Virus record (IMG/VR): IMGVR_UViG_3300048592_000259
Location: 1-62,961 of that record
Length of the DNA: 62,961 nt
From: a virus
Reading direction: 5' to 3' (one strand)
A program made the translations under genes and the position numbers. Below, piece by piece: positions 1 through 62,961 of the stretch (the stretch's first letter is position 1; every line of letters begins with the position of its first letter). The notes beneath the pieces are model-generated. The model saw only the letters and a program-made list of their open reading frames with translations. It had not been told where the DNA came from and did no database searches.

Positions 1-127
1 TCGCGGACGATCTGCGCGGCCTCGATCATCGCCGGCCGGATGTCGAGTTCGCCACCGAAGTCCACCTTCGCCCACGCGGGCGCGGCGGCGGTGAAGGCGT
101 GCAGGATGTTCTTGATGTCCGAGTCGT
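1..127. repeat. Terminal direct repeat, left copy
   Basis: These 127 bases are identical to the last 127 bases of the window (62835-62961). An exact overlap of odd length at the two ends of a phage contig is what an assembler leaves when it closes a circular or circularly permuted genome. It is much more likely an assembly overlap than a physical terminal repeat, because it lies inside the coding sequence of the giant virion gene, whose reading frame continues through it. Confidence 0.95.
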
Positions 128-2396
128 TTTCCTCGGTCGCGAGGCTCACCAGGTCCGCGTTGCCGTACGCCTTCGCGAACAGCGCGGCGCGGTAGCGGTC
201 GACGAACTGCTTGGTGAATTTTCCCTCTTTCGTGACCAGGTTGTTGCGCTCGTCGGGCGGCACGGCGCGCAGGAACGACCGCAGCGCCGCGTCGTTGTCC
301 GGCGTGTCGATCGCACCGTTGTCCGAGACGTTCAGCCCCTCCGGATCCAGCGCGCGCGCGTCGTTCTGCGCTTGCTCGGGCGACGACAGGTTCAGGTGGC
401 TCTGCGGGTTCGACAGCGCGCCGATGTTCGGCCGCGCGTTCTCGGCGTCGTCGTAGACGCGCACCAGGATCGGGTTCTTGACCGCGGCAATCGCCTCGGG
501 CGGGATGCCGTGTTCCTTCGCGTTCTCGATCAGCGCTGCGCGGTACGTCTCCGCGCTCCCGCGCCGGTACGCCTCTTGGAGGCCCGCGACGCGGCCGTTG
601 TTGAGCGCGCGGATCGTGCCCGGCGCCGGCTTGGTGAAGTAGTCGCCGTTCACCGAGCCGTCGGCGTTGTTCGAGGCCAGCACGTCGTCGGCCTCGACGA
701 CCGCGTAGCGCACGCCGATCTTCGACCCGTCGCCCATGACGACGCGCGACGTGTGCCCGAAGTTCGTGTCCGGGATGGCCGAGGCGTTGGCGGCCACCGA
801 CACCATCGGCGCCGCCTCGTTCGGGGACTTGCCGGTGCCGAGACGATCGTAGTCGGGGTTGTTCGCGATCGCGTTCATCTGCGCGACCGACGCGGGCCGC
901 GAGCGGTCCCGCGGCTGCATCTGGAGGTCCGGCGGGCTCGTCACGTCGGCGCGCAGGGGCGCATTCGGCGGCGCGCCGGCAGGCTCGTACGGATCCGCCG
1001 CCGCGCCCGACTGGACGGCGGCGCCCGCGGCGCGCGCGACCGGGCCGGCATCGGGCTTCTCCCACGGCTTGGGCACCGAGAAGTCGCGCAGGGCCGAGTT
1101 GTCGGCGCGCGAGGCGGTCGCCATGCGGTCGAGCGCGGCGTTCGCGTCATCGTCGGACAGCGGGGGCAGGTCGGGCAGCGTGGAAGAGCCGCCCCCTTCC
1201 TCTCCCTGGGCGGCGGACGCGGGGCTCTTCTCCGCGGGGGCGACAGGCGCGGCGCCCGTCGCCGGCGCGGGCTCGCCGCGCAGCGCCGCGAGGCGGGCGT
1301 CCTCGGCCGCGCGCGCCGCGTATACCTCGTCGGCGTTCCGGTCGGCGTCCAGGCCCGGCGTCGGGTCGGGCGTGCCTTGGGGCGGCGGCACGATCGGCGG
1401 GCGCGTGACCGTCTCGGGCGACGGCAGGAGCCCGGTCGGGGCCGCGGCCGGCGCGGGGACCGCCTCGGGCTGGCGCCGCAGCCGTTCGATGCCGTGGCCG
1501 ATGCTGCCCGCGACGCCGCCGCCGAGTCCGCCGAGGATGCCCGCGTTCAGGATGTCCGACACGCCCTCGGGCGAGAAGGTCTTGATCGACGGGTCGACGT
1601 GTTCGACCGCCTTGCGCTCCAGGACGGTCTGCGCGCCTTCGGTCGTCGCCTCGGCGCCCACCTGCTTCGCGATGTCGACGAGCGCGCCGCCGCGCGGCTT
1701 CGCCTTCCCGACGACCTTCCCGATCAGCCGGGCCTCGGGCAGCACGTCGAGCAGGCCCGCCGGCACGCCGTAGCCGATCGCCGCGAGCGGGTCGGTCTTC
1801 CCGGTCTGCTCGTAGGTGTCGCCCTGGATCAGGCCCGCCTCGGTGCCGATCGACGTGGCGCCCGCGCCCGCGATCGCGCCGCGCTGGACCGCCTTGCCGG
1901 CGACCTTCGCGCCCGCCACCCCCGCCGCCTCGCGCGCCGCCTCCATGCCCGCGCCGCGCGCGATCGCCTGCCCGCCGGCCGCGCGCGCAGCTGCGGCGAC
2001 CGCGCCGCGGCCCGCGAGGTTCGCCGCGAAGCCGCCGACGCCGCCGCCCAGCGCCGACGTGACGGCGAACGGGGCGAGCTCGCCCAGGCCCCCGGCGACG
2101 TACTTCGCGGCGTCACCGACCGAGGCGATGTCCTCGAAGCGCGAGACGGCGCCCGCGTCCTTCTCGGCCGCGGCGCTCGCGCGCAGCGCGCCCTGCCGGC
2201 CGTAGTCCTTGAGCCCGTCGATGCCCGTCAGGTCGCCCGCGATCGACGTGAGGCCGTAGACCGCGCCCTTCGTCGCCTCGATGCCGCGCTTGACGCCCTT
2301 CTTGAACTCGCCGCCGAGGGTCGGGGGCTCGAAGCCGGACGTGAGCGGATCGAAGAACTCGGGCTGCTTCGCGAGCGGGTCGACGAACTCGGCCAT
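1..2396 (-). CDS. Giant polyvalent virion protein, N-terminal part (residues 1-799 of about 4,494)
   Basis: The minus-strand frame opens at ATG 2396, has no stop down to base 1, and continues in frame at 62834 when the circle is closed, ending at 51746. The full product is about 4,494 residues. The start follows an AGGAGA Shine-Dalgarno sequence and lies 3 nt after the stop of the upstream virion gene. Residues about 60-230 are Gly/Ala-rich and hydrophobic, as in phage internal proteins that enter membranes. A Pro-rich linker follows. Residues about 540-710 look like the ddrB-ParB domain of polyvalent proteins, with the pattern VRYAVVEADD, then GTIRALNNGRVAGLQEAYRR. Polyvalent proteins are packaged with phage DNA and delivered to protect or prepare the host cell. 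The family and the role are inferred from motifs, but the continuity of the frame is direct observation. Confidence 0.9.
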   Translation of the reverse strand, partial: MAEFVDPLAKQPEFFDPLTSGFEPPTLGGEFKKGVKRGIEATKGAVYGLTSIAGDLTGIDGLKDYGRQGALRASAAAEKDAGAVSRFEDIASVGDAAKYVAGGLGELAPFAVTSALGGGVGGFAANLAGRGAVAAAARAAGGQAIARGAGMEAAREAAGVAGAKVAGKAVQRGAIAGAGATSIGTEAGLIQGDTYEQTGKTDPLAAIGYGVPAGLLDVLPEARLIGKVVGKAKPRGGALVDIAKQVGAEATTEGAQTVLERKAVEHVDPSIKTFSPEGVSDILNAGILGGLGGGVAGSIGHGIERLRRQPEAVPAPAAAPTGLLPSPETVTRPPIVPPPQGTPDPTPGLDADRNADEVYAARAAEDARLAALRGEPAPATGAAPVAPAEKSPASAAQGEEGGGSSTLPDLPPLSDDDANAALDRMATASRADNSALRDFSVPKPWEKPDAGPVARAAGAAVQSGAAADPYEPAGAPPNAPLRADVTSPPDLQMQPRDRSRPASVAQMNAIANNPDYDRLGTGKSPNEAAPMVSVAANASAIPDTNFGHTSRVVMGDGSKIGVRYAVVEADDVLASNNADGSVNGDYFTKPAPGTIRALNNGRVAGLQEAYRRGSAETYRAALIENAKEHGIPPEAIAAVKNPILVRVYDDAENARPNIGALSNPQSHLNLSSPEQAQNDARALDPEGLNVSDNGAIDTPDNDAALRSFLRAVPPDERNNLVTKEGKFTKQFVDRYRAALFAKAYGNADLVSLATEENDSDIKNILHAFTAAAPAWAKVDFGGELDIRPAMIEAAQIVR

Positions 2397-50452: not shown

Positions 50453-50671
50453 ATGCGCGCACGCGCGATGCTCGAAGACCCGGAACGAGCGCCCCTCACG
50501 ATCAAGCTGACGGCGACGGTCGCGGAGTGGGTTGCCCTGCGCGGCGACATCCTGCGCTTGCGCGAGTCGTCGACGATTTCGCCGGGCGCGGACGACCTGC
50601 TGCGCCTCATCAACGAAGGCGTCGCGCTCGCGCGCCAAGCGTTCTATCCGAAGGAGCGGGACGATGGCTGA
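50453..50671 (+). CDS. Hypothetical protein, 72 aa
   Basis: Helical protein (PLTIKLTATVAEWVALRGDI; ISPGADDLLRLINEGVALAR). ATG 50453 fits the GGAGG at 50441-50445; ATG 50447 is too close. No family recognised. Confidence 0.72.
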   Translation: MRARAMLEDPERAPLTIKLTATVAEWVALRGDILRLRESSTISPGADDLLRLINEGVALARQAFYPKERDDG

Positions 50672-51149
50672 ACAAGAAGTAACGATCCCCTGGTGCCCGT
50701 TCTGCGCGGGCAAGCCGGAGGTCCTGAAGCTCCCCGGCGCGCGCGCCGTGTGCTGTACGTCGTGCGGCGCGCTCGGGCCGGCGGCGCACGAGAGCGACTT
50801 CCCCGGCCGGACCGAAGCGGAGGCCCTGAACCTGTGGAAGAAGCGCGGCGGCGTCGGCAACACGCGCATCGCCGCGGTGCAGGCCGGCGTCACGCCCGAC
50901 ACCTGCATCGTCGCCGAGAACTTGCAGAAGGCGATCGAGAAGGTCATGGCGAACGAGTACGGCAACGTCGACGTGTCGGTGCTGCTGCTTCTCGACACGA
51001 AGACGAAGCGGCTCGGCATCATCAAGCACCGCCTCGACGACCTGGGCTTCCAGCAGGTCCTTCAGGCGATCCTGTCGGGGCTGGTCGGGCCCGGCGGGCC
51101 ACTCGCGCCGCAGCGGCAGCACGGCGGGCTCATCATCCCAGGGAGGTAG
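50664..51149 (+). CDS. Lar-like restriction-alleviation zinc-ribbon protein, 161 aa
   Basis: The N-terminal 60 residues, WCPFCAGKPEVLKLPGARAV, CCTSCGALGPAAHE and TEAEALNLWKKR, have the C-x2-C...C-x2-C and final A-x-x-x-W-x-x-R of Lar family proteins, which protect phage DNA from type I restriction in related systems. The C-terminal 100 residues form an extra alpha/beta domain. It lies next to the methyltransferase. Confidence 0.82.
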   Translation: MAEQEVTIPWCPFCAGKPEVLKLPGARAVCCTSCGALGPAAHESDFPGRTEAEALNLWKKRGGVGNTRIAAVQAGVTPDTCIVAENLQKAIEKVMANEYGNVDVSVLLLLDTKTKRLGIIKHRLDDLGFQQVLQAILSGLVGPGGPLAPQRQHGGLIIPGR

Positions 51150-51745: not shown

Positions 51746-54700
51746 CTACTGCGCCAGGCGTTCGCGCAGGTCGTTGCGCATGCCGGCGGGCGCCGCCTTC
51801 ACGAAGCGTTCGCTGCGCGTGGTCTGCATTTCCTTCACGCGGCGCGCGATGTCGCTCGGGCGAATCTGGATCTTCGCTTCGGGGTTCTTCTCGTTCCAGT
51901 CGCGCAGCTGCGCGAGCGCGTCGTTCACCTTCGCCTTGTCCTTCTCGAAGATGCCGGTCGCCCAGCGGTCGGCCACTTCGCCCTGCACCGCGCGCACCAG
52001 GTTCGCGGTCTGCTGGCCTTCGCTGATGATGCGCGACTCGGCGGCCACCTTCGACGGGTTGAACCCCGTGGCGCGGGCGATCGCGTCGGTCGTGTCGGTC
52101 GCGATGACGCGCCGGCCGCGGCTGTCGAGCGCGTAGCCGCCCTGGATCATGTCGACGGCCTTCGCCGCGTCCTGGAGCGCCTTCGGCGCGAACTGGCGCG
52201 CCGCGGCGCCGAACTCGCCCGACTGCGCGCTCGTGACGGCATCCGCGACGCTGCGCGCGAGCCCGCCGGCCGGCCCCAGCACGTCCACGATGTCGCGGCC
52301 CTTGTCGACGTTCGACTTCTTCGCGAGGCCCGTGCCGGGGATCAGGTTGCCCATCCCCATGCGGCCCTGCACGTCGAGCGGGAAGCCGGGCATCGTCGAC
52401 GCGCCGTGCAGCACGAACGCGCCCAGGTCCTTCCCGAGGGTCGAGACGATGAACGCGCGCTTCTGCTCCTTCGTGTTCCAGTTGTACCCGAGGGACTGCG
52501 CGATCGTGTCGATCAGGTCGTCCAGGTCGTCCGAGAACGGGAGCCCGGAGATCCCGGACGCCAGCATCAGCAGGCCCAGCGCGTACGCGCGCTCGCGCGG
52601 GGGCAGGCGCTTCAGGAACTCCAGGTAGGCGATCGAGTACTGCTTGAACGTCATCACCGTCGCGCCGATCGGGCCGCGCGCCCAATTCGGCCGGTTCGCC
52701 TTGTTGTAGACGCCCTGCGTCTCCGCGATCGCGTTGACCGCGAAGTCGTAGGCGCTCTTGGCGCCGGCGTCGGCAAGCTGCTCGGCGTTCCAGTCCTTCG
52801 CCATCCCGAAGGCGGCGAGGAAGGTGGACCGGCGGTTGAACTGCTCGGCGACGGCGAACATCGACCCCCACACCTTGAGGCCCTTCCGGAGGTAGATGTT
52901 CGACCCGAGCCCGCGGATCGACTCGGCGTACAGCTGGTGGATTTCGTGCGGCGAGACGGTGCCCTCGCGCTCGGCGCGCGCGAGCGCCGCGGCCGTGGCG
53001 GGATCCGTCGGCCGCGTCACCGCCTCCTTCATGCCTCGCGCGAGCGCGCCCGCGGCCTTGGTCGCGCCGAACTGCGACAGGTAGGGCAGCGTCATCATGA
53101 ACGGCTGGGTCGTGTTCACGACCGCCGACGCGACCGACCCGCCGAGGTACTGGACGAACAGGAAGCCGCGCAGCGACGCCGCTTCCTCCTTCGGGTCCTG
53201 GAGGTAGGTGACGAGCTTGACCGCCTCGTCCTTCACGTCGCCCATGCGCTTCGGGATCGCCTCGACCGCATCGTTCATGTCGGCGTTGTTGAGGTTCCCC
53301 GACGCCGCGCGCGCGTTGCTCGTGATGAAGGCCGACAGCACGCGCTGGGCGTCCTGGTCGAAGCCGGCGATGCCCTGGCGTTGCAGCAGGCGCTTGAGCG
53401 CGCTGCGGTTGTTCAGGGCCATGCGGATGAACTCGTGGAACGCCTCGCGCTGGTCGGCGCCGGTCGCCTTCGCGAACAACTCCAGCGTGTCCGGCGTCAT
53501 CCCGCGGAACATCTTGTGGGCTTCCTTCGACAGCGTGCCCTGGGTGACTTGGGCGTTCGGGAACTCGGCGCGCAGCGACCGCGCCATTGCGTTCGCGTCC
53601 GCCTGGCGCTCGAACATGCCGAAGTAGACGCGGTTGTCGCCCTGCACCGCGTCGACGGTGTACTGGCCGAAGCGCATCAGCGGCGCGTAGCCCTCGCGGA
53701 TCAACTCGCGCACGCGGCCGTACCGGTTCAGGATCTCGCCGGCCGTCGCGGAAAGCTCCGCGCGCGCCGCCTCGGTCGTCGCGGCCTGCGACAGGCGGAT
53801 CAACTCGCCAGAGAGGGCCTGGGACGCGCCGTGGTGCGTCAGGAGCATGGCCTGGTCGATGAACGCCTTGTCGACCTTCCCGCGCGCCAGGCGAGCCATT
53901 TCCGACTGCGAGAGCGTTTCCAGCGACCGTTCGATCGCCGCGCGCGACTCCTGGTAGAGGCCGACCTGGCGCGGCGTCAGGTGGAAGCGATCGCGCAACT
54001 CGGCTTCGGTGTACTCGCGCTCGTCGATCAGCGTGCCGTGGAACAGCGGCACCGACACGGCGCGCACGTCCTTCGACGACGGGCCGATCTTGAGGACGCC
54101 CGAGAGCCCTTCGAGCTTCGGCAGGAGGTCCTTCGCCCGGTCGGCCGCGTCGTTCGCGATGCGCGACACGTCGTTGACGTACCGCTGCGCCTGGTCGTAG
54201 ACCCGCTTGAACTCGGGCACGACGGTCGCCTTGTGGAACTGCGTGCCGACGGTCTTGTGCCAGGGGTTGAAGACGCGCTGGGTCGTCAGGTGGTCCTGGA
54301 TGCGATCGGTGATCCTCGACACGGTGCCGCGGGACACCCCGAACGGCAGGCCGGGCTCGGCGACGATCCATTGCGGGTCAGCCTCGCCGACTTCCGGCTG
54401 GGCGGCATCGCCGGCCGTGTAGCGGCGCAGCGGTTCGGCCGCGACCGGCTTGGCCTCGTCGTCCGCTTCCTCCCCGCCCTCGGGCGCCGCGGCGGCGCCG
54501 TTGTCCTCCACCCCGATCCCGAGGGCCTTGTCGAGTTCGCGCTGGCGCTCCAGTAGCTCCTGGACCTTCGCGGCCTGCGGGTAGGGCTTCTCCGACTCGG
54601 CGCGCGCGACGGCCGCGTTGGCCGCGTTCTTCTCGGCCACGGCCGTCATCCGGGCCGCTTCCTCCGTCACGTCGCGCACCAGCCCTTCGAGGCGCTGGAT

Positions 54701-57700
54701 GTTGCCGTCGGCCGACTCGCCGGCCGTGGTCGCGTAGCTGTTCGCGCCCTGGAGCGCGAGGCGCACGGTCACATGGTCGCCGTAGCTCGCCTTCTCCTTC
54801 GTCACGGCGACCGGGAAGCCGCCCAGGTGCCCGACGACGATCGGCGGCTGGTTCATGCCGACTTCGCTGACGGCGCGCGCGAAGGCGCCCGCCGCCTCCA
54901 CGCGGTCGGCGTAGCGGCGATCGCCCACGGTCATCAGGAAGGCGTCCCCGCGCGTCGACACCACGCGGCCCGCGTCGAGCTTCGCGCGCTCGGCGTAGGC
55001 ACGCTGGTTCGTCGCGTACTGTTCGAGCTTCGTTGCCTCCAGCCGGAGCCGGTAGGCGTTCTCGTTGTGGCGGGCCTGGGACGACGTGAGGCGCGACAAC
55101 TCGCCGTCGACGTTGGCCTTTTCGAGGATGAGCGGGTTCCCCGAGGCGAACGCCTTCAACTCGGCGTAGGTCAGGGCGCGGTCGCTGACTTCCTCGATTT
55201 CGCGCACCGACGGATCCGCGCGCATCACCTGGTCGATGAAGGCCGACTTGCGCTCGACCGCCGACCACATGAAGGCGTCGAAGGACCCCTCGGTGATGTA
55301 GTGCCAGAGTTCGACTTCCTCGTTCTCGTTGCCCTGCCGCACCATGCGGCCGTTGCGCTGTTCAACGTCGGCGGGACGCCACGGCACGTCCAGATGGTGC
55401 AGGGCCTTCAGGAGGCGCTGGACGTTCGTGCCGGCGCCCATCTTGTCGGTCGAACCCAGCAGGATGCGCACGCGGCCGGCGCGCACGTCCTCGAACAGCC
55501 GATCCTTCTTGAGGTCGGTGTCCGCGTCCTGGATGAAGGCGACTTCGTTCGCCGGCACGCCCGCCTTCACGAGCTTGTCGCGGATGTCCTGGTAGACGCT
55601 GAACTTGCCCTTGTGGGGCGTCGAGAGGTCCGAGAAGATCAACTGCGACGACTTCGCCGCGCGCGTCTCGGTCCAGATCCGCAGGACGTTGGCGACCGCC
55701 TTGTTCACCTTCGACTCGGGGTCGTCCGCCGCCTTCGGGTCGACCAGGCGCATGTCGAGCGCGGCCTTGCGACCCTCGCTCGTGATCTTGAGCATGTTGT
55801 CCTGCCGCGGGTCGACCGTGCCGGTCTTGATCGCCTCGGCGCGCGCCACGAGATCCGCGACGAACGCTTCCATTTCGGCGGTCTTCGGCGAGGTCATCGA
55901 CTGCGGCTTGCCGCCGCGCAGCTTCGGCACCGGCAGCTTGAGCATGTCCGCCGTCTTCACGTCGGCGAACTCCCCGAACATCTGCGCGAGCTCGCCCACG
56001 TTGACGAACTTCGCGAACCGGGTCTTCGGAGCGTACCCGCCGCCGTCGGCGCGCATCTCGTACTGCGTGACCGCCTCGCCGAACTGAGCGGCCCAATTGT
56101 CGAATTGGTCGAGCCCCGCGGCCTGGAGGGACTTCATGCCCAGGTACCGCTGCATCGTGAACATTTCCGTCACGCTGTTCGCGATCGGGGTGCCGGTCAT
56201 GAAGACCACGGCGCCGCGGCCGTTCGCCTGGTCGTTCAACCACGCCGTCTTCAACAGCATGTCGGTCGACCGCTGCGAGTCCGCCGTGCCGATACCCGGC
56301 ATGCGGTCCATTTTCGTCTCGAAGCCGAGGTTCTTGAAGTAGTGGGCTTCGTCGACGAACAGGCGATCGACGCCGAGTTCCTCGAAGCGCACCACGTCGT
56401 CCTTCGCCGCCATCGCCAGTTGCCGGTCGAGGCGCGCCTTCAGGTCCTTCTTGCGCTTCTCCAGGCGCTTCTGGAGACGGCTGTTCTTCCCGCCGCCCTG
56501 GGTCTGAGCCTGTTCGAGGATGGCTTCCTCGACCTGCCGGATGCGCTCCTGGATGAAGTTGGCGACGTACTCGTCCGACATCGCGAGCTTCTGGAACGAC
56601 GAGTGCGTGATGACGATGCCGTCCCAATTCCCGGTCGCGATGCGCGAGGCGAGCTCCTTCCGCTTTTCGGCGACCAGATCCTCCTTGCGCGCCAGCAGCA
56701 GGTTCGCGTTCGGGTACAGCTGGAGCCATTCCCGCGAGTACTGTTCCAGCATGTGATTCGGAACGACGTGCATCGGCTTGCGCGCCGCGCCGATCCGCTT
56801 CAACTCCATGCTGCCGGCGATCGCCGTGAAGGTCTTGCCGGCGCCGACCGCGTGCGCGAGCAGGGTGTTCCCGCCCGTGACGATCCGCCACGCACCGTCC
56901 TTCACGTTCTGGCGCAGCTTGATGAGCGGGTTCGTGCCCGGCAGCGTCAGGTGCGACCCGTCGTACTTCCGCAGCTGGGTCGTGTTGAACTCGTCGTTGT
57001 AGAGGCGAGCGAGCGCGTCGCGCACGTCGTCGGTGCGCATCCACCACGCCTCGAACTCGGCGCGGATCGCGTCGATCTTCTCGGCCGCGGCCAGCGTCGC
57101 GGCGGTGTTGACCGTCGTGGTGCCGTCCGAATGGTGAATCAGGATCTTCGGCTTCTGCTGGTTCAGGGCCGACTCGAACAGCGACAGCGCGTGCAGTTCG
57201 GGCGTGCCCCATACCCCGCGCATCTGCGGCGTGTCCGTGTTCACCGAGCGCGGCGTGACGCGCCAGTCCGATGTGGTGGGCGAGAAGTGGATGTCGAAGG
57301 CGTTGCGCTGCGGGGTGCCGAACGTCTCCTGCGCGAAGCGCGCCAGCACGTCGGTCGGAATCCACCGCTGGCCCAGGCGGGCGCGGATGGCCGACGGCAC
57401 CAGGTCTTGCGGGATGACGGCGCGCAGCGCCTTGGCGTTCGCCTCGAAGGCCGGATCGGTCAGGGCGGCCGCCTCCGCTTCCCGGAGCTTCGCGCGCACG
57501 TTGCCCGACAGGTACGCCTCGGACTGCTGCCACGAACGTTCCACCGGGTCGAGGTAGATGCGCCCGTCGAGCCCGCCGATCAACTCGGCCTCGGAGAAGC
57601 CCGTCAGCCGGCTCATGTGCGCCAGGTCGACGCGCCCGAGCTCGTTCAGGGAGGCGGTCAGCGCGTCGATCGCGTTGTCGGCCGACGTGATCGGCACCGA

Positions 57701-60700
57701 CCGCTGGACCGTGCGCTGGGTGAACACGTCGGCCTTCGCCGCCGTCTTCTTCTCGGGGTTCCACTTCTCCAGGGCGAGCAGGAGCGGCGCGTCCGAGTCT
57801 TCGATGATGGTCGCGCGGTTCGCCTTCTCGTTCAGGTAGCCGTGCTTCTTGACGAAGGCGTCGTAGGCGTCGTTCAGGGCCGCGGCGGTGGCGTCGAAGC
57901 GCGCCTGGTCGTCCGTCTCGACCTGGGTGCGCAGGTGCGCGCGCGCGGCGTCGCGAATGGCGATCGCCGCCGTCACCTTCGCCGCGTCCAGGTGGCTCAT
58001 GGGCTGGAGCAGCCCGCGGCCCTTCTGGAAGACCTTGCCGTTCTTCACGACCAGCGCGCCCGGCTTGATGTCGTCCGGCGCCGGGATCGGCTCGTCGAAC
58101 ACCTTCGAGGTCGCGATCGGCTTCACCCCGTCGGCGGGGAGCTTGGCGATCGCGTCGCGGATGCTCGCCGGCAGGTCGCGGCCGTCCGACTTGAGCGCTG
58201 CGTCGCCGCGGCCGTACATCGTGCCCTCGCGCGTCATCCGCCCCATCATCATTTCGGGATGGGCGACGAAGTACTCGTTGACGCGCAGGTCGCCGTCCGC
58301 CGATTTGATCGTGTCCAGGTTCAGCCACTTCGCCTCGCCGGGCGCGGGATCCGCCTCGCGCTCGCGCTTGCGCAGGAAGATGATGTCCGTCGTGACTTCG
58401 GTGTTCGCGTTCGCCTTGAAGGCGTCGTTCGGCAGGCGGATCGCGCCCAGGAATTCGCCCTTGCGCGCGATCAGCGCGCGGGCCGCGCTGTTCATCTTGT
58501 CCATCGTGCCGTCGCTCGTGACGAACGCGACGACGCCGCCAGGGCGCACGCGGTCGAGCGCCTTGGCGAAGAAGTAGTCGTGGATGAACAGCTTGTGCTT
58601 GTTGTACTTCGGGTCGCTGACGGTGTAGTCGCCGAACGGGACGTTCGAGATTGCCACGTCGAAGAAGCCGTCCGGGAACTGCGCCTGCTCGAAGCCCTGC
58701 ACCCGCACGTCGGCGGTCTGGTACAGCTGCTTGGAGATCCGGCCGGACAGGCTGTCGAGTTCCACCCCGGCGAGCGTCGACGCGCTGCGCGCGGCGTCCG
58801 GCATCAGGCCGAAGAAGTGGCCGACGCCCATCGCGGGCTCCAGGACGCGACCGCCCTTGAAGCCCATGTGCGCGAGCGCGTCCCACATCGACGTGATGAT
58901 CTGCGGCGCGGTGTAGTGGGCGTTCGGCGTCGACCCGCGCGCGAGTTCGTATTCCTCCTTCGTCAGGAGGTCGAATAGCTCGCGGCGCTCCTTCGCCCAC
59001 TCGGGGGACTGGCCGCGTTCCATCGACATCGGGCCGTAGCCCGACCGGTTCGTCTCCTTCAGCCAGCCGTCGAAGTAGTCGTAGTGGCCGAGGTAGAAGG
59101 CGTTCTTCATGCCGCCCCACCCGACGTAGCGCGAAAGCGTCTCCTGCTCGGCCGGCGTCGCGGCGCGGCCCTCGGATTCGAGCGTCTTCAGGACGCGGAT
59201 CGCTTCGAGGTTGCCGGCGTACTTCTGCTTCAACCCGCCGGTCCCGATCGTCTCGGGCCGCGTGATGCGGAAATTTACGCCCGTGCGCGTGGGCGGCTTG
59301 TACGCGATGGGGCGTCGTACCCGTTCGCGTCCGCCTCCCTTGTCTCCGCGTCCTTGGTCAGCAGCAGGTCCGGAATCACCGCCGCTTCCGCCTCGACGAG
59401 AGCGGTCCCCGGATCCGCCCCCTTCGCGATCAGGCTGTCCATCATCGCGTCGACCGCGTTGAACGTTTCCTCGGCCTTCGCCGCCACCGTCGCGTTGAGC
59501 GTCCCGTCCGCCTGCATCTGCTCGAACGCTTCCGGGTCCGCCTCCTTGAGGCTTCGCCGCGCCATCGTTTCGTACTTCTTGGGTGCCACCTTGGCCTCCT
59601 TGCGAGAACAGGTCGTCGAACAGGTCCGCGATCGCGCCGGGCGACTCCTTCTTCGCGCGCGCGACGACGGCCTTACGCTCCGGAACCGGGTCGCCGAACA
59701 GGTCGAGCGTTTCGCGCGCGTGGTATTCGCGCGCCTCTTTGCGACCACCGAGCCGGAAGTCGTGGCGCGGGAAGATGCCGGCGGCCTGAATCGAACCCGT
59801 GATCGGGTAGGAATTCGGGTCCGCCGTCACGGGCGCATCGACGATGGCGTCGCGCAGGAATCCGTTGGACACGGCCACCGAGGCTACGCGCCCGAGATTG
59901 TTCGGAACGCCGACCGCGAAGATGCCGTTGCCGCTTCCGGACGCCCGCGCGAGGCGGGACAGCATCGCGCCGGTCCGCAGGTTCTCCTTGAATCGTTCGT
60001 GCGGGATTTCTGCGAGCAGGGTGATCTTGTTGTCGGCCCCCACGCCGATGAGCGCGATCATGCCCGGCTTCTGGATCTTCTTGCCGATCCGCGCTACGTC
60101 GTATTCGTTTTCGACGCGATCGTAGCCGAGATCCTTCGCCGGGGCGGGCGCGTTCGCCGCGAGGGTGCGGACTTCCGCCACGAACCTTTTCCGCTTCCGG
60201 TCAATCCGGATCAGCCCGAACTTGTTCGTGTCGAGGATGACGTGCCCGCCGTATAGCTTCGCGAGCGCCTTATTTCCGAGAATGTAGTCGGTCAGGTTGA
60301 CATCGGAGCTCGATGCCTCGGGGCGCCCGGACGGGTGGTTGTGCATCAGGTAGAACTTGTCCGCGTCGAGCGACTTCGCGATGTACTCCAGGCGCAGCAG
60401 GAACATCTTCGGCGAGCCGACGAACGCCGCGGTTACTGACGGCAGGCGCGAGGTCACCGCTTCCTCGTGGATGACCTTACCGCCCTTGGTGAAGACGTAG
60501 CGCATCGTCTCGTAGCGCGGGTCGCGGTAGACCTGTGCGACCGCCGCCAGGTCGGCGTAGCTCGTGACCGGCTTCCCGAGCAGCGTCGATTCCCCGTCGC
60601 GGATCATGTCGAGATTGATCGCCGCGGCGAGGACCGACACGCGGCCGGCCTGGGTGAGTTCGCGCATGGCGCCGTCGCGCGCGGCCTTCGCCTTCGCGTT

Positions 60701-62961
60701 CTCGTCGGCGCGCTTCGGCAGCGCGTCCACGGCCTTGAGCGCGGCCGTCTGCGCCGCCGCCACCAGGTCGTCGGTGCGCTTCGCCGTCTCGGCGCGCTGG
60801 GCCTTCGTCATGGACGCGCCGGGCTCGAACAGCGCCTTCTGGCCGGCCGCGGCGCCCACGTCGGCGTCGCGATCGCTGCCGGTCAGGGCGAAGCCCTTCG
60901 GGTCGGGCGCACGATCGCGCTTCGCCGCGTCGGCCTCGCGCTTGGCGGCGATCGCCGCGTCGACCTTCGCGGCCTGTTCCGTCTGCGCAACAAGCGAGAA
61001 ACCGCCGGTCGCCGCATTGTCGCTATCCCCTTGACTTGGGGGTACAATTGGGGTTGTGGACCTTCCCGATTCCTTCCCCTCCGGCGCCTCCTTCCTCGAC
61101 GTGGAAGGCGTGCCCGTGTCGCTCGGCGCGGGCGTCAAGGGGCTGTACTGCGCCGCTTGGGACGGCAAGGCGCCGCGACCCTTCCCGGTCGACTCGGCGC
61201 GGTCCAACGGCGCCCCGGTGAGCGAAGACGGCTTCCGCGCCTTGGTCGCCTCCTTCCACGCCGCGTCGTAGATCGCCTTCATCTTCGCGTTCAGGGTCGC
61301 GATGATGCGGGCCTCGAACGGTGTCGGGTCGCGCTTCTCCGCCTCCAGCTTGCGTTCCAGCTTCGCGCGGCGCTCGTACAGCGGGTGCGCGATTTTCTTG
61401 GCGCCGAGCATCGCCGGCAGGTTCACCTGCACTTCGGCGACGATGCCGCCGACGTTCACGTTGAACTTGGCGTCCCGGTAGCCGTCGACGGGATCCGCCG
61501 AATCGTCCAGGAGATTGCGCCGGCCGTTCGGCAGCACGTCGAACGCCGCGAGGATCTGTGCGACCGCCTCGCGCGCCTCGGCCGGCGTGTCGGCGACGAT
61601 CGTGCCGCGCAGCACGTCCTTGATCCTGGCCGCGTCGCCCGCGTAGTCGGCCTGGATCTTCTCGACGGCGCGCGCGGTGCCCTTGAGCGGCGCCAGCTTG
61701 GCCTTGCCGCCGATCGCCGCGGCGATCGTCTCCAGGGCGGCGTCGAAGTCGGGCTTCGCCGCCTCGGCCGCGGAGTAGATCATGGACAGCGTTTCCCGCG
61801 CGTCGGGCGGGAGCTTCTCGGCGTGCGCATCGCCCTTGAGCGGGTCGTCCAGGATGTCGACCTGCTTCTCGTCGAACACCTTGAACTCGACCGCCTCGGA
61901 CGTGTCGCCGTTGCTCGCGTGGATCGCGCCGTCGAAGCCCGCGGCCTTGAGCTTCGCGACTTCGGCGGGGTCGTCGAGGAACTGGTAGGCGTCGAAGTAG
62001 AGGTCGCCCAGCTTCGATGGGTCGCGCTTGAGAAGGTCCGCGACGTTCGAGTACTCGGCCGAGAAGCCCTCGTCCCAATTGTTCGTGCCTTCGATCGCGT
62101 GGGCGAACTTGAGCGCGATGCGCTTCGCCTCTGCCGCGCCGAGCTCGCGCTGGATCGCGTCGAGCCCGATGAACGGGTCGTCCGGCTGGTCGATGAACGG
62201 GTTGTCGAGCGTCAGGCGCGCGCGCAGGACGCGCGGGTCGACGGCGTACTTGTCTTGAATCCGGTCGTTCGGCTCGTCGGCGTAGGTCTGCGCGGCCTCG
62301 CGCTTGTCGACGAACGTGATGGACGGGTTGCGCGTCTGGACCTTGCGGCCGTCGCGCTTGCCGTGTTCGCCGCGGTAGACGACCGCGGGCAGCTTGGAAC
62401 GCTTCAGCCCTTGGGCGGGCTTGGCCGCTTGAGCGGCGGTTCCTTGCTGTTGATCCGGTTCCCCGCGGCGACGATCAGGTGCGTCAGGCTCTCGACCTGC
62501 GCCGTCCTCGCCTCGTTGCGGGGCTGCGCGGCTGGGGCCATTTTCGGCGGCGATCCGGGGTGCTTCGCTGCCATACGAGTCCTCCAGGAACCGGTTGACG
62601 CGGGCCGTCAGGTCCGCGGTCGTGGCCGGCGCGCGCCCGAACATATCGCCCGAGGTCGCCGCCTGCTTCTCATCGTACAGGAAGCGCGCGGCCTCGGAAA
62701 AGCCCGCCGCCAGGCGCTTCGGCGACCGCGTGTTCTGGAGCATCAGCCCCGTCATCGCGACCGTCATCGGGTCGCGGCCCAGGAGATCCGGCTGGCGCAG
62801 CACTTCCTCGCCCTTGAGCCCCCGCGACTTCGCCTCGCGGACGATCTGCGCGGCCTCGATCATCGCCGGCCGGATGTCGAGTTCGCCACCGAAGTCCACC
62901 TTCGCCCACGCGGGCGCGGCGGCGGTGAAGGCGTGCAGGATGTTCTTGATGTCCGAGTCGT
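51746..62961 (-). CDS. Giant polyvalent virion protein, C-terminal part (ART-, RelA-like, JAB, MTase, SNF2 helicase, PLxRFG)
   Basis: This continues the gene that starts at 2396; bases 62835-62961 repeat 1-127. Approximate domains in whole-protein numbering: ADP-ribosyltransferase-like module 945-1130 (VVYRG; ITF; AVEFKVFDEKQVDIL); RelA/SpoT-like module 1145-1340 (IKDVLRGTIV; GYRDAKFNVNV; AEVQVNLP); JAB/RadC metalloprotease fold near 1630 (HNHPSG, then SSSDV); DarB-type DNA methyltransferase 2000-2300 (YVGWGG; LEPAMGVGHFFG; NVPFG); SNF2-type helicase 2750-3330 (Walker A AVGAGKT; DEAHY; MTGTPIANS; RNGRMVRQG); and a PLxRFG domain (PLMRFGQY) near 3850, followed by an Ala-rich helical tail. Related DarB-like proteins protect injected DNA from restriction. 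It is probably a virion protein ejected into the host. The domain names are recognition by motif only. Confidence 0.93.
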   Translation of the reverse strand, partial: DSDIKNILHAFTAAAPAWAKVDFGGELDIRPAMIEAAQIVREAKSRGLKGEEVLRQPDLLGRDPMTVAMTGLMLQNTRSPKRLAAGFSEAARFLYDEKQAATSGDMFGRAPATTADLTARVNRFLEDSYGSEAPRIAAENGPSRAAPQRGEDGAGREPDAPDRRRGEPDQQQGTAAQAAKPAQGLKRSKLPAVVYRGEHGKRDGRKVQTRNPSITFVDKREAAQTYADEPNDRIQDKYAVDPRVLRARLTLDNPFIDQPDDPFIGLDAIQRELGAAEAKRIALKFAHAIEGTNNWDEGFSAEYSNVADLLKRDPSKLGDLYFDAYQFLDDPAEVAKLKAAGFDGAIHASNGDTSEAVEFKVFDEKQVDILDDPLKGDAHAEKLPPDARETLSMIYSAAEAAKPDFDAALETIAAAIGGKAKLAPLKGTARAVEKIQADYAGDAARIKDVLRGTIVADTPAEAREAVAQILAAFDVLPNGRRNLLDDSADPVDGYRDAKFNVNVGGIVAEVQVNLPAMLGAKKIAHPLYERRAKLERKLEAEKRDPTPFEARIIATLNAKMKAIYDAAWKEATKARKPSSLTGAPLDRAESTGKGRGALPSQAAQYSPLTPAPSDTGTPSTSRKEAPEGKESGRSTTPIVPPSQGDSDNAATGGFSLVAQTEQAAKVDAAIAAKREADAAKRDRAPDPKGFALTGSDRDADVGAAAGQKALFEPGASMTKAQRAETAKRTDDLVAAAQTAALKAVDALPKRADENAKAKAARDGAMRELTQAGRVSVLAAAINLDMIRDGESTLLGKPVTSYADLAAVAQVYRDPRYETMRYVFTKGGKVIHEEAVTSRLPSVTAAFVGSPKMFLLRLEYIAKSLDADKFYLMHNHPSGRPEASSSDVNLTDYILGNKALAKLYGGHVILDTNKFGLIRIDRKRKRFVAEVRTLAANAPAPAKDLGYDRVENEYDVARIGKKIQKPGMIALIGVGADNKITLLAEIPHERFKENLRTGAMLSRLARASGSGNGIFAVGVPNNLGRVASVAVSNGFLRDAIVDAPVTADPNSYPITGSIQAAGIFPRHDFRLGGRKEAREYHARETLDLFGDPVPERKAVVARAKKESPGAIADLFDDLFSQGGQGGTQEVRNDGAAKPQGGGPGSVRADAGGRDAQRDGGGEGRGNVQRGRRDDGQPDREGGGSGDRSRRGGSGGDSGPAADQGRGDKGGGRERVRRPIAYKPPTRTGVNFRITRPETIGTGGLKQKYAGNLEAIRVLKTLESEGRAATPAEQETLSRYVGWGGMKNAFYLGHYDYFDGWLKETNRSGYGPMSMERGQSPEWAKERRELFDLLTKEEYELARGSTPNAHYTAPQIITSMWDALAHMGFKGGRVLEPAMGVGHFFGLMPDAARSASTLAGVELDSLSGRISKQLYQTADVRVQGFEQAQFPDGFFDVAISNVPFGDYTVSDPKYNKHKLFIHDYFFAKALDRVRPGGVVAFVTSDGTMDKMNSAARALIARKGEFLGAIRLPNDAFKANANTEVTTDIIFLRKREREADPAPGEAKWLNLDTIKSADGDLRVNEYFVAHPEMMMGRMTREGTMYGRGDAALKSDGRDLPASIRDAIAKLPADGVKPIATSKVFDEPIPAPDDIKPGALVVKNGKVFQKGRGLLQPMSHLDAAKVTAAIAIRDAARAHLRTQVETDDQARFDATAAALNDAYDAFVKKHGYLNEKANRATIIEDSDAPLLLALEKWNPEKKTAAKADVFTQRTVQRSVPITSADNAIDALTASLNELGRVDLAHMSRLTGFSEAELIGGLDGRIYLDPVERSWQQSEAYLSGNVRAKLREAEAAALTDPAFEANAKALRAVIPQDLVPSAIRARLGQRWIPTDVLARFAQETFGTPQRNAFDIHFSPTTSDWRVTPRSVNTDTPQMRGVWGTPELHALSLFESALNQQKPKILIHHSDGTTTVNTAATLAAAEKIDAIRAEFEAWWMRTDDVRDALARLYNDEFNTTQLRKYDGSHLTLPGTNPLIKLRQNVKDGAWRIVTGGNTLLAHAVGAGKTFTAIAGSMELKRIGAARKPMHVVPNHMLEQYSREWLQLYPNANLLLARKEDLVAEKRKELASRIATGNWDGIVITHSSFQKLAMSDEYVANFIQERIRQVEEAILEQAQTQGGGKNSRLQKRLEKRKKDLKARLDRQLAMAAKDDVVRFEELGVDRLFVDEAHYFKNLGFETKMDRMPGIGTADSQRSTDMLLKTAWLNDQANGRGAVVFMTGTPIANSVTEMFTMQRYLGMKSLQAAGLDQFDNWAAQFGEAVTQYEMRADGGGYAPKTRFAKFVNVGELAQMFGEFADVKTADMLKLPVPKLRGGKPQSMTSPKTAEMEAFVADLVARAEAIKTGTVDPRQDNMLKITSEGRKAALDMRLVDPKAADDPESKVNKAVANVLRIWTETRAAKSSQLIFSDLSTPHKGKFSVYQDIRDKLVKAGVPANEVAFIQDADTDLKKDRLFEDVRAGRVRILLGSTDKMGAGTNVQRLLKALHHLDVPWRPADVEQRNGRMVRQGNENEEVELWHYITEGSFDAFMWSAVERKSAFIDQVMRADPSVREIEEVSDRALTYAELKAFASGNPLILEKANVDGELSRLTSSQARHNENAYRLRLEATKLEQYATNQRAYAERAKLDAGRVVSTRGDAFLMTVGDRRYADRVEAAGAFARAVSEVGMNQPPIVVGHLGGFPVAVTKEKASYGDHVTVRLALQGANSYATTAGESADGNIQRLEGLVRDVTEEAARMTAVAEKNAANAAVARAESEKPYPQAAKVQELLERQRELDKALGIGVEDNGAAAAPEGGEEADDEAKPVAAEPLRRYTAGDAAQPEVGEADPQWIVAEPGLPFGVSRGTVSRITDRIQDHLTTQRVFNPWHKTVGTQFHKATVVPEFKRVYDQAQRYVNDVSRIANDAADRAKDLLPKLEGLSGVLKIGPSSKDVRAVSVPLFHGTLIDEREYTEAELRDRFHLTPRQVGLYQESRAAIERSLETLSQSEMARLARGKVDKAFIDQAMLLTHHGASQALSGELIRLSQAATTEAARAELSATAGEILNRYGRVRELIREGYAPLMRFGQYTVDAVQGDNRVYFGMFERQADANAMARSLRAEFPNAQVTQGTLSKEAHKMFRGMTPDTLELFAKATGADQREAFHEFIRMALNNRSALKRLLQRQGIAGFDQDAQRVLSAFITSNARAASGNLNNADMNDAVEAIPKRMGDVKDEAVKLVTYLQDPKEEAASLRGFLFVQYLGGSVASAVVNTTQPFMMTLPYLSQFGATKAAGALARGMKEAVTRPTDPATAAALARAEREGTVSPHEIHQLYAESIRGLGSNIYLRKGLKVWGSMFAVAEQFNRRSTFLAAFGMAKDWNAEQLADAGAKSAYDFAVNAIAETQGVYNKANRPNWARGPIGATVMTFKQYSIAYLEFLKRLPPRERAYALGLLMLASGISGLPFSDDLDDLIDTIAQSLGYNWNTKEQKRAFIVSTLGKDLGAFVLHGASTMPGFPLDVQGRMGMGNLIPGTGLAKKSNVDKGRDIVDVLGPAGGLARSVADAVTSAQSGEFGAAARQFAPKALQDAAKAVDMIQGGYALDSRGRRVIATDTTDAIARATGFNPSKVAAESRIISEGQQTANLVRAVQGEVADRWATGIFEKDKAKVNDALAQLRDWNEKNPEAKIQIRPSDIARRVKEMQTTRSERFVKAAPAGMRNDLRERLAQ
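62835..62961. repeat. Terminal direct repeat, right copy
   Basis: Exact second copy of bases 1-127. Removing one copy gives a 62,834-bp circle and joins the two parts of the giant minus-strand gene in the same reading frame. Confidence 0.95.

What the first reader, a model, noticed from the sequence alone, without database searches (positions are those of the whole stretch)
61210..61800. RelA/SpoT-like nucleotidyltransferase module inside the same virion protein
LKGTARAVEKI, IKDVLRGTIV, GYRDAKFNVNV and AEVQVNLPAM follow the order of conserved elements in (p)ppGpp-synthetase-like domains (R-x-x-D-x-x-R/G, GY, E-x-Q). A phage particle carrying an alarmone-synthetase-like or toxSAS-like domain together with an ART-like domain would be a pre-packed set of host-attack enzymes.
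Basis: inference. Interest (0 to 1): 0.62.

Follow-up and report, generated by a model that had tools for sequence, protein, structure and literature searches.

The report
Phage-carried alarmone-synthetase domain
A giant phage protein, probably packed in the virus particle, contains an apparently intact enzyme domain of the kind bacteria use to make the starvation alarm nucleotides (p)ppGpp/(p)ppApp, most likely used to disturb the host cell; such domains in phage proteins were already known, but this branch is undescribed as far as I could find.

Summary
Window 61223-61813 (minus) encodes a RelA/SpoT-type synthetase (SYNTH) domain. Its best solved relative is Tas1/Apk1, a T6SS (p)ppApp synthetase (phmmer E=1.1e-15; profile E=2.2e-37). 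The AlphaFold2 model (pLDDT 95.5) finds Tas1 and the exported synthetase SaEAS as its best folds, and the catalytic Asp and Glu, the Arg and the Lys residues are kept. The window is a closed circular phage contig (127-bp end repeat). Across the join, the domain lies at residues ~1140-1335 of a 4494-aa polyvalent protein: DdrB-ParB, ART-like, SYNTH, RadC-like, DNA methylase/SNF2 (DarB-like), PLxRFG. P1 DarB and DdrB are head proteins, so virion delivery is likely but not shown. RelA/SpoT domains in phage polyvalent and MuF proteins are published, so this is a new member of a known kind. Apparently undescribed: a supported clade with an invariant syn3 motif GYRDAK and a conserved, predicted-disordered ~55-aa tail, carried by several unrelated phage proteins; related domains are fused to portal proteins. 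No HD_4 alarmone hydrolase was found in the window phage, unlike portal-type and some portal-adjacent relatives. Acceptor (ATP, GTP or tRNA) is undetermined.

The parts
61223..61813 (-). RelA/SpoT-type synthetase (SYNTH) domain, residues ~1140-1335 of the joined 4494-aa protein
   Evidence: Tas1 hit E=1.1e-15; profile E=2.2e-37; AF2 pLDDT 95.5; Foldseek best hits 6ox6, 8vx3
61616..61618 (-). catalytic Asp (IKD-VLR), D66 of the domain = Tas1 D327 / SaEAS D121 by alignment
   Evidence: invariant in 30 relatives; D121A inactivates SaEAS (PMC12691689)
61433..61435 (-). Glu of syn4 (AE-VQV), E127 of the domain = Tas1 E382
   Evidence: invariant in 30 relatives; ATP-site residue in PMC12691689
61466..61483 (-). 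syn3 motif GYRDAK, invariant in the tail-bearing clade
61040..61240 (-). conserved C-terminal tail (SSLTGAPLDRAE..GRGALPSQAA..TGTPSTSR), predicted disordered
61814..62413 (-). ART-PolyVal-like domain just upstream of SYNTH
   Evidence: PF18760 E=0.017, sub-threshold; phrog_8642 E=2e-31; L022 homology across both domains
51746..62961 (-). main part of the giant polyvalent protein ORF (runs off the contig end)
1..2396 (-). N-terminal part of the same ORF, ATG at 2396
453..923 (-). DdrB-like ParB domain (PF18763)
   Evidence: E=3.4e-19
60281..60370 (-). RadC-like JAB stretch (HNHPSG)
   Evidence: PF04002 E=8.8e-5
55331..58843 (-). DNA methylase + SNF2 helicase region, DarB-like
   Evidence: phrog_10089 DarB-like antirestriction, E=0; PF00176, PF00271
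51788..53692 (-). PLxRFG C-terminal domain (NF032893)
   Evidence: E=3.5e-148
1..127 (.). direct terminal repeat, identical to 62835-62961: circularly closed contig

Best explanation
The segment is a catalytically intact RelA/SpoT-superfamily synthetase domain of the Apk/Tas1-like (toxic small alarmone synthetase) branch, built into a giant DarB/DdrB-type polyvalent protein. The phage makes the protein late, packs it in the head and ejects it with the DNA. Inside the new host the domain moves pyrophosphate from ATP to the 3'-OH of a purine nucleotide. This either raises a stringent-response-like signal or drains ATP/GTP, slowing host transcription, replication and translation while the neighbouring ART, methylase and helicase modules act on other targets. 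Shown: sequence homology, fold, conserved active site, purifying selection on relatives, domain order. Inferred: packaging, ejection, activity, product, benefit to the phage.
For: Tas1 hit E=1.1e-15; profile of 30 relatives finds Tas1 at 2.2e-37, then SaEAS, SAS and Rel enzymes. AF2 pLDDT 95.5, pTM 0.88; Foldseek best hits Tas1, then SaEAS, then RelP/SAS1. K44, K52, D66, E127, Q129, K139 and Y146 are invariant, R69 nearly so; D66, R69, E127 and Q129 match D121/R124/E182/Q184 of SaEAS. dN/dS 0.06-0.45 among relatives. Virion link: the giant gene starts 3 bases after the preceding gene of a same-strand block that includes portal, capsid and terminase. It fuses relatives of P1 DarB and DdrB, both head proteins in P1 (PMC9024508). 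Relatives of the domain are joined to a portal protein, an internal virion protein and a tail lysozyme.
Against: No biochemical or proteomic data. Syn3 is DxK, not the GxN of Apk enzymes or the SxH of RSH enzymes, so the acceptor cannot be read off. No HD_4 hydrolase in the phage and no obvious same-strand immunity gene downstream, so it is unclear how the producing cell is spared. In some carriers (L005, L007, L012, L043) the rest of the protein has no known virion domain.
Confidence: 0.62

Rival explanations
1. The domain is a tRNA-CCA pyrophosphokinase (FaRel2/CapRel-type toxSAS) that stops translation, rather than a nucleotide alarmone synthetase.
For: Same fold superfamily; phages and toxin-antitoxin loci carry tRNA-modifying toxSAS (PMC11782079, PMC11559606). 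The acceptor motif is atypical.
Against: The closest solved relatives by sequence and fold are nucleotide synthetases, Tas1 and SaEAS. The basic tRNA-binding patches of FaRel2 were not examined.
Confidence: 0.12
2. The SYNTH domain is catalytically dead or only structural/regulatory in this protein.
For: It sits inside a 4494-aa chain; syn3 differs from characterised enzymes; no hydrolase or immunity gene is seen in the window phage.
Against: Active-site residues are invariant, including positions not used to find the loci; dN/dS is low.
Confidence: 0.1
3. It is an active alarmone synthetase, but the giant protein acts in the producing cell or lysogen (for example against rival phages) rather than being injected from the virion.
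For: Named phages with the closest giant proteins include temperate types with integrases (8P, F1Pa). Iyer et al. 2017 (PMC5512222) also suggest action against rival elements for cyclic-nucleotide enzymes in such proteins.
Against: Its gene lies in the structural gene block; the DarB and DdrB parts are head proteins in P1; other carriers are virion proteins.
Confidence: 0.14

Closest known systems
Tas1/Apk1, T6SS (p)ppApp synthetase (PDB 6OX6)
   Same: SYNTH fold; D-x-x-R, GY, E-x-Q and Lys residues; best sequence and fold match
   Different: About 26% identity over the structural alignment; PAAR/T6SS carrier; syn3 GVN instead of DAK; cognate immunity protein; no conserved tail
Apk2, MuF-fused phage (p)ppApp synthetases (PMC12226406)
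   Same: Synthetase domain attached to a phage head protein
   Different: Domain is C-terminal on MuF and followed by iapK and aph1 immunity genes; here it is internal in a DarB-type protein and no HD_4 hydrolase is found
RelA/SpoT domains in phage polyvalent proteins (Iyer et al. 2017, PMC5512222)
   Same: Same concept; the same paper describes the partner domain types (DdrB-ParB, ART, RadC, methylase, SNF2) of polyvalent proteins
   Different: [quoted passage not shown] this clade, its tail and the portal fusions were not seen in the passages I read
Exported alarmone synthetases SaEAS/VpEAS (PMC12691689)
   Same: Same superfamily; toxic when in the cytoplasm; a Vibrionaceae relative (L004) shares GYRDLK
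   Different: Secreted bacterial enzymes, single domain with signal peptide
Phage P1 DarB/DdrB (PMC9024508)
   Same: DarB-like methylase/helicase and DdrB-like ParB parts; in the P1 head
   Different: Separate proteins in P1, about 250 and 109 kDa; I saw no SYNTH domain reported

Membership tests
RelA/SpoT-superfamily SYNTH domain | SYNTH (Pol-beta NTase) fold | tested here: met
   AF2 pLDDT 95.5; Foldseek hits to Tas1, SaEAS, SAS1, RelP, Rel with probability 1.00
RelA/SpoT-superfamily SYNTH domain | Catalytic Asp, Glu, ATP-site Arg and Lys residues | tested here: met
   with residue roles
RelA/SpoT-superfamily SYNTH domain | Pfam PF04607 above cut-off | tested here: not met
   No hit for the window domain; relative P0002 (Bordetella phage PHB04) passes, 30.6 vs 27 bits. 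A curated cut-off, not a biological defining feature; the model appears insensitive to this branch
Apk (adenosine 3'-pyrophosphokinase) | Syn3 GxN signature | tested here: not met
   GYRDAK in the window and invariant in its clade; signature from PMC12226406
Apk (adenosine 3'-pyrophosphokinase) | Makes (p)ppApp from ATP only | not testable with these tools
   Needs enzymology
Apk2 (MuF polymorphic toxin) | N-terminal MuF domain with iapK and aph1 downstream | tested here: not met
   No MuF Pfam hit in the giant protein; no HD_4 in the phage; iapK not testable, no model at hand
Phage polyvalent protein | Several conflict-related domains in one chain with DdrB-ParB, ART, methylase or SNF2 | tested here: met
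   ART and RadC parts are weak matches
Phage polyvalent protein | Carried in the virion and delivered at infection | not testable with these tools
   Supported only by homology to P1 head proteins and by gene position

The most novel reading that the evidence does not exclude
A mobile cassette, SYNTH domain plus its own conserved disordered tail, has spread through unrelated phage proteins (polyvalent DdrB/DarB type, internal virion protein, tail lysozyme). The tail (PLRRAE..RGG.SQA..TGMPSTSK) controls or releases the enzyme, replacing the separate immunity and hydrolase genes of the MuF and portal types, and the GYRDAK site gives a product different from (p)ppApp.
Probability: 0.15. Interest if true: 0.65.

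Novelty: new member of a known kind. Interest (0 to 1): 0.4.

Why it matters
It adds evidence that phages carry ready-made alarmone-type synthetases on several different, mostly virion, carriers, including the portal. It also gives a defined, testable clade whose substrate, control and role at the start of infection are open questions.

Tried and rejected
Pfam and NCBIfam gave no usable hit for the domain itself. A single-sequence scan of viral contigs found no relatives; the alignment-based scan found 38 loci. The genome-contig scan with the diverse alignment failed and worked with the closer set. Cis-inhibition by the tail was tested with AF2: the tail is predicted disordered (pLDDT ~40), so no support. 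A tail hit in Rhodobacter phage RcCWillis (E=0.6) is opposite to an annotated gene: chance. Acceptor specificity from the tree is unresolved because deep branches are long. A genus-wide search for Vibrio-type relatives was not possible.

Full report
Observation. The quoted peptides lie in frame on the minus strand at window 61223-61813. The contig is circularly closed: bases 1-127 equal 62835-62961. Joining the ends gives one ORF, 2396->1 then 62834->51746, 4494 aa with no internal stop.

Identity of the domain. phmmer against the PDB finds one sequence, Tas1 (6ox6), E=1.1e-15. A profile from 30 loci finds Tas1 at 2.2e-37, then SaEAS, SAS and Rel proteins. The AF2 model has pLDDT 95.5 and pTM 0.88. 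Foldseek ranks Tas1 first (TM 0.69), SaEAS second, then small alarmone synthetases and Rel. In the viral library the best match is a 'DdrB-like domain-containing protein' of an uncultured phage at 53% identity, so database entries of this kind already exist.

Active site. Aligned to Tas1 and SaEAS, the catalytic Asp (D66 of the domain), Arg (R69), Glu (E127) and Gln (E-x-Q) are present. K44, K52, D66, G111, E127, Q129, K139 and Y146 are invariant in 30 loci. The loci were found with patterns for the GY and E-x-Q motifs, so conservation there is partly built in; K44, K52, D66, R69, K139 and Y146 are free of that bias. dN/dS between relatives is 0.06-0.45 (the pairs above 0.3 are divergent, so those values are rough). 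Apk enzymes have GxN at syn3 and RSH enzymes SxH (PMC12226406). Here it is GYRDAK, invariant in the clade. A Vibrionaceae protein with a signal-like N-terminus (L004) has GYRDLK and resembles the VpEAS type, which makes (p)ppGpp only (PMC12691689); that it is an ortholog was not verified. I therefore do not assign the acceptor.

Carriers. Window protein: DdrB-ParB, ART-PolyVal-like, SYNTH, RadC-like, methylase, SNF2/DarB-like, PLxRFG end. L022: ART then SYNTH inside an internal virion protein with endolysin domain (phrog_342). L009: Phage_lysozyme2 protein. L013-L021: the scanned representative L016 is a portal protein with SYNTH at the C-terminus (PF06381, phrog_146). L029 and L044: DdrB-ParB-type proteins (for L029; L044 by eye). 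L037: SYNTH then RadC. PHB04 type (L002, L023-L038 apart from L029, L035 and L037): in PHB04 it is the gene directly after the portal gene, followed by an HD_4 hydrolase. The nearest named giant proteins are those of Pseudomonas phages 8P and Hollowayvirus F1Pa; tblastn of the domain against named phages returned only PHB04 and Helicobacter prophages, so the module is accessory.

Tail. Right after the domain a ~55-residue stretch is conserved in the window, L005, L006-L012, L022, L043, L044, L059, L062 and L065. A codon-pattern scan for TGMPSTSK over the viral contigs found the full tail only behind SYNTH domains; the pattern covers only some codings, so this is a sample. The tail rows in the tree form one clade (98/90 support). 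AF2 predicts the tail disordered. Its role is unknown: processing site, binding motif or control element.

Hydrolase. HD_4 was found in contigs of the portal type (5), the PHB04 type (3) and L039, but in none of the window-clade contigs tested nor in the window. Most of those contigs are fragments; the window is closed.

Literature. RelA/SpoT domains in MuF proteins were predicted in 2012 (PMC3482391) and in phage polyvalent proteins in 2017 (PMC5512222). Apk2 enzymology is published (PMC12226406). A search for portal proteins together with alarmone synthetase listed no paper that by title or abstract reports the portal fusion, in an open-access library only.

Verdict. A real, probably active alarmone-type synthetase domain in a probably virion-borne phage protein; a known concept with a distinct, apparently undescribed clade.

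Noticed in passing
window 61040-61240 (-); L005, L007, L009, L010, L011, L012, L022, L043, L044, L059, L062, L065: A conserved ~55-aa tail with PLRRAE, RGG.SQA and TG(M/T)PSTS motifs follows the SYNTH domain in one clade only; predicted disordered, function unknown.
   Followed up: partly
L013-L021 (for example L016:8309-10585 +): Portal protein with a SYNTH domain fused at its C-terminus; five of these contigs also encode an HD_4 hydrolase, on the one checked about 2.5 kb downstream of the SYNTH gene.
   Followed up: partly
window 1-127 and 62835-62961: Exact direct repeat: the record is a circularly closed contig although the giant gene is cut by its ends.
   Followed up: yes
L002:12743-13321 (+): Bordetella phage PHB04 gene annotated as bifunctional (p)ppGpp synthetase/hydrolase matches only the HD hydrolase domain; likely the partner hydrolase of the SYNTH-bearing gene next to the portal.
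   Followed up: partly
window 50532-51149 (+): Weak match to Lar-like restriction alleviation protein (E=2.7e-5), convergent with the giant gene.
   Followed up: no
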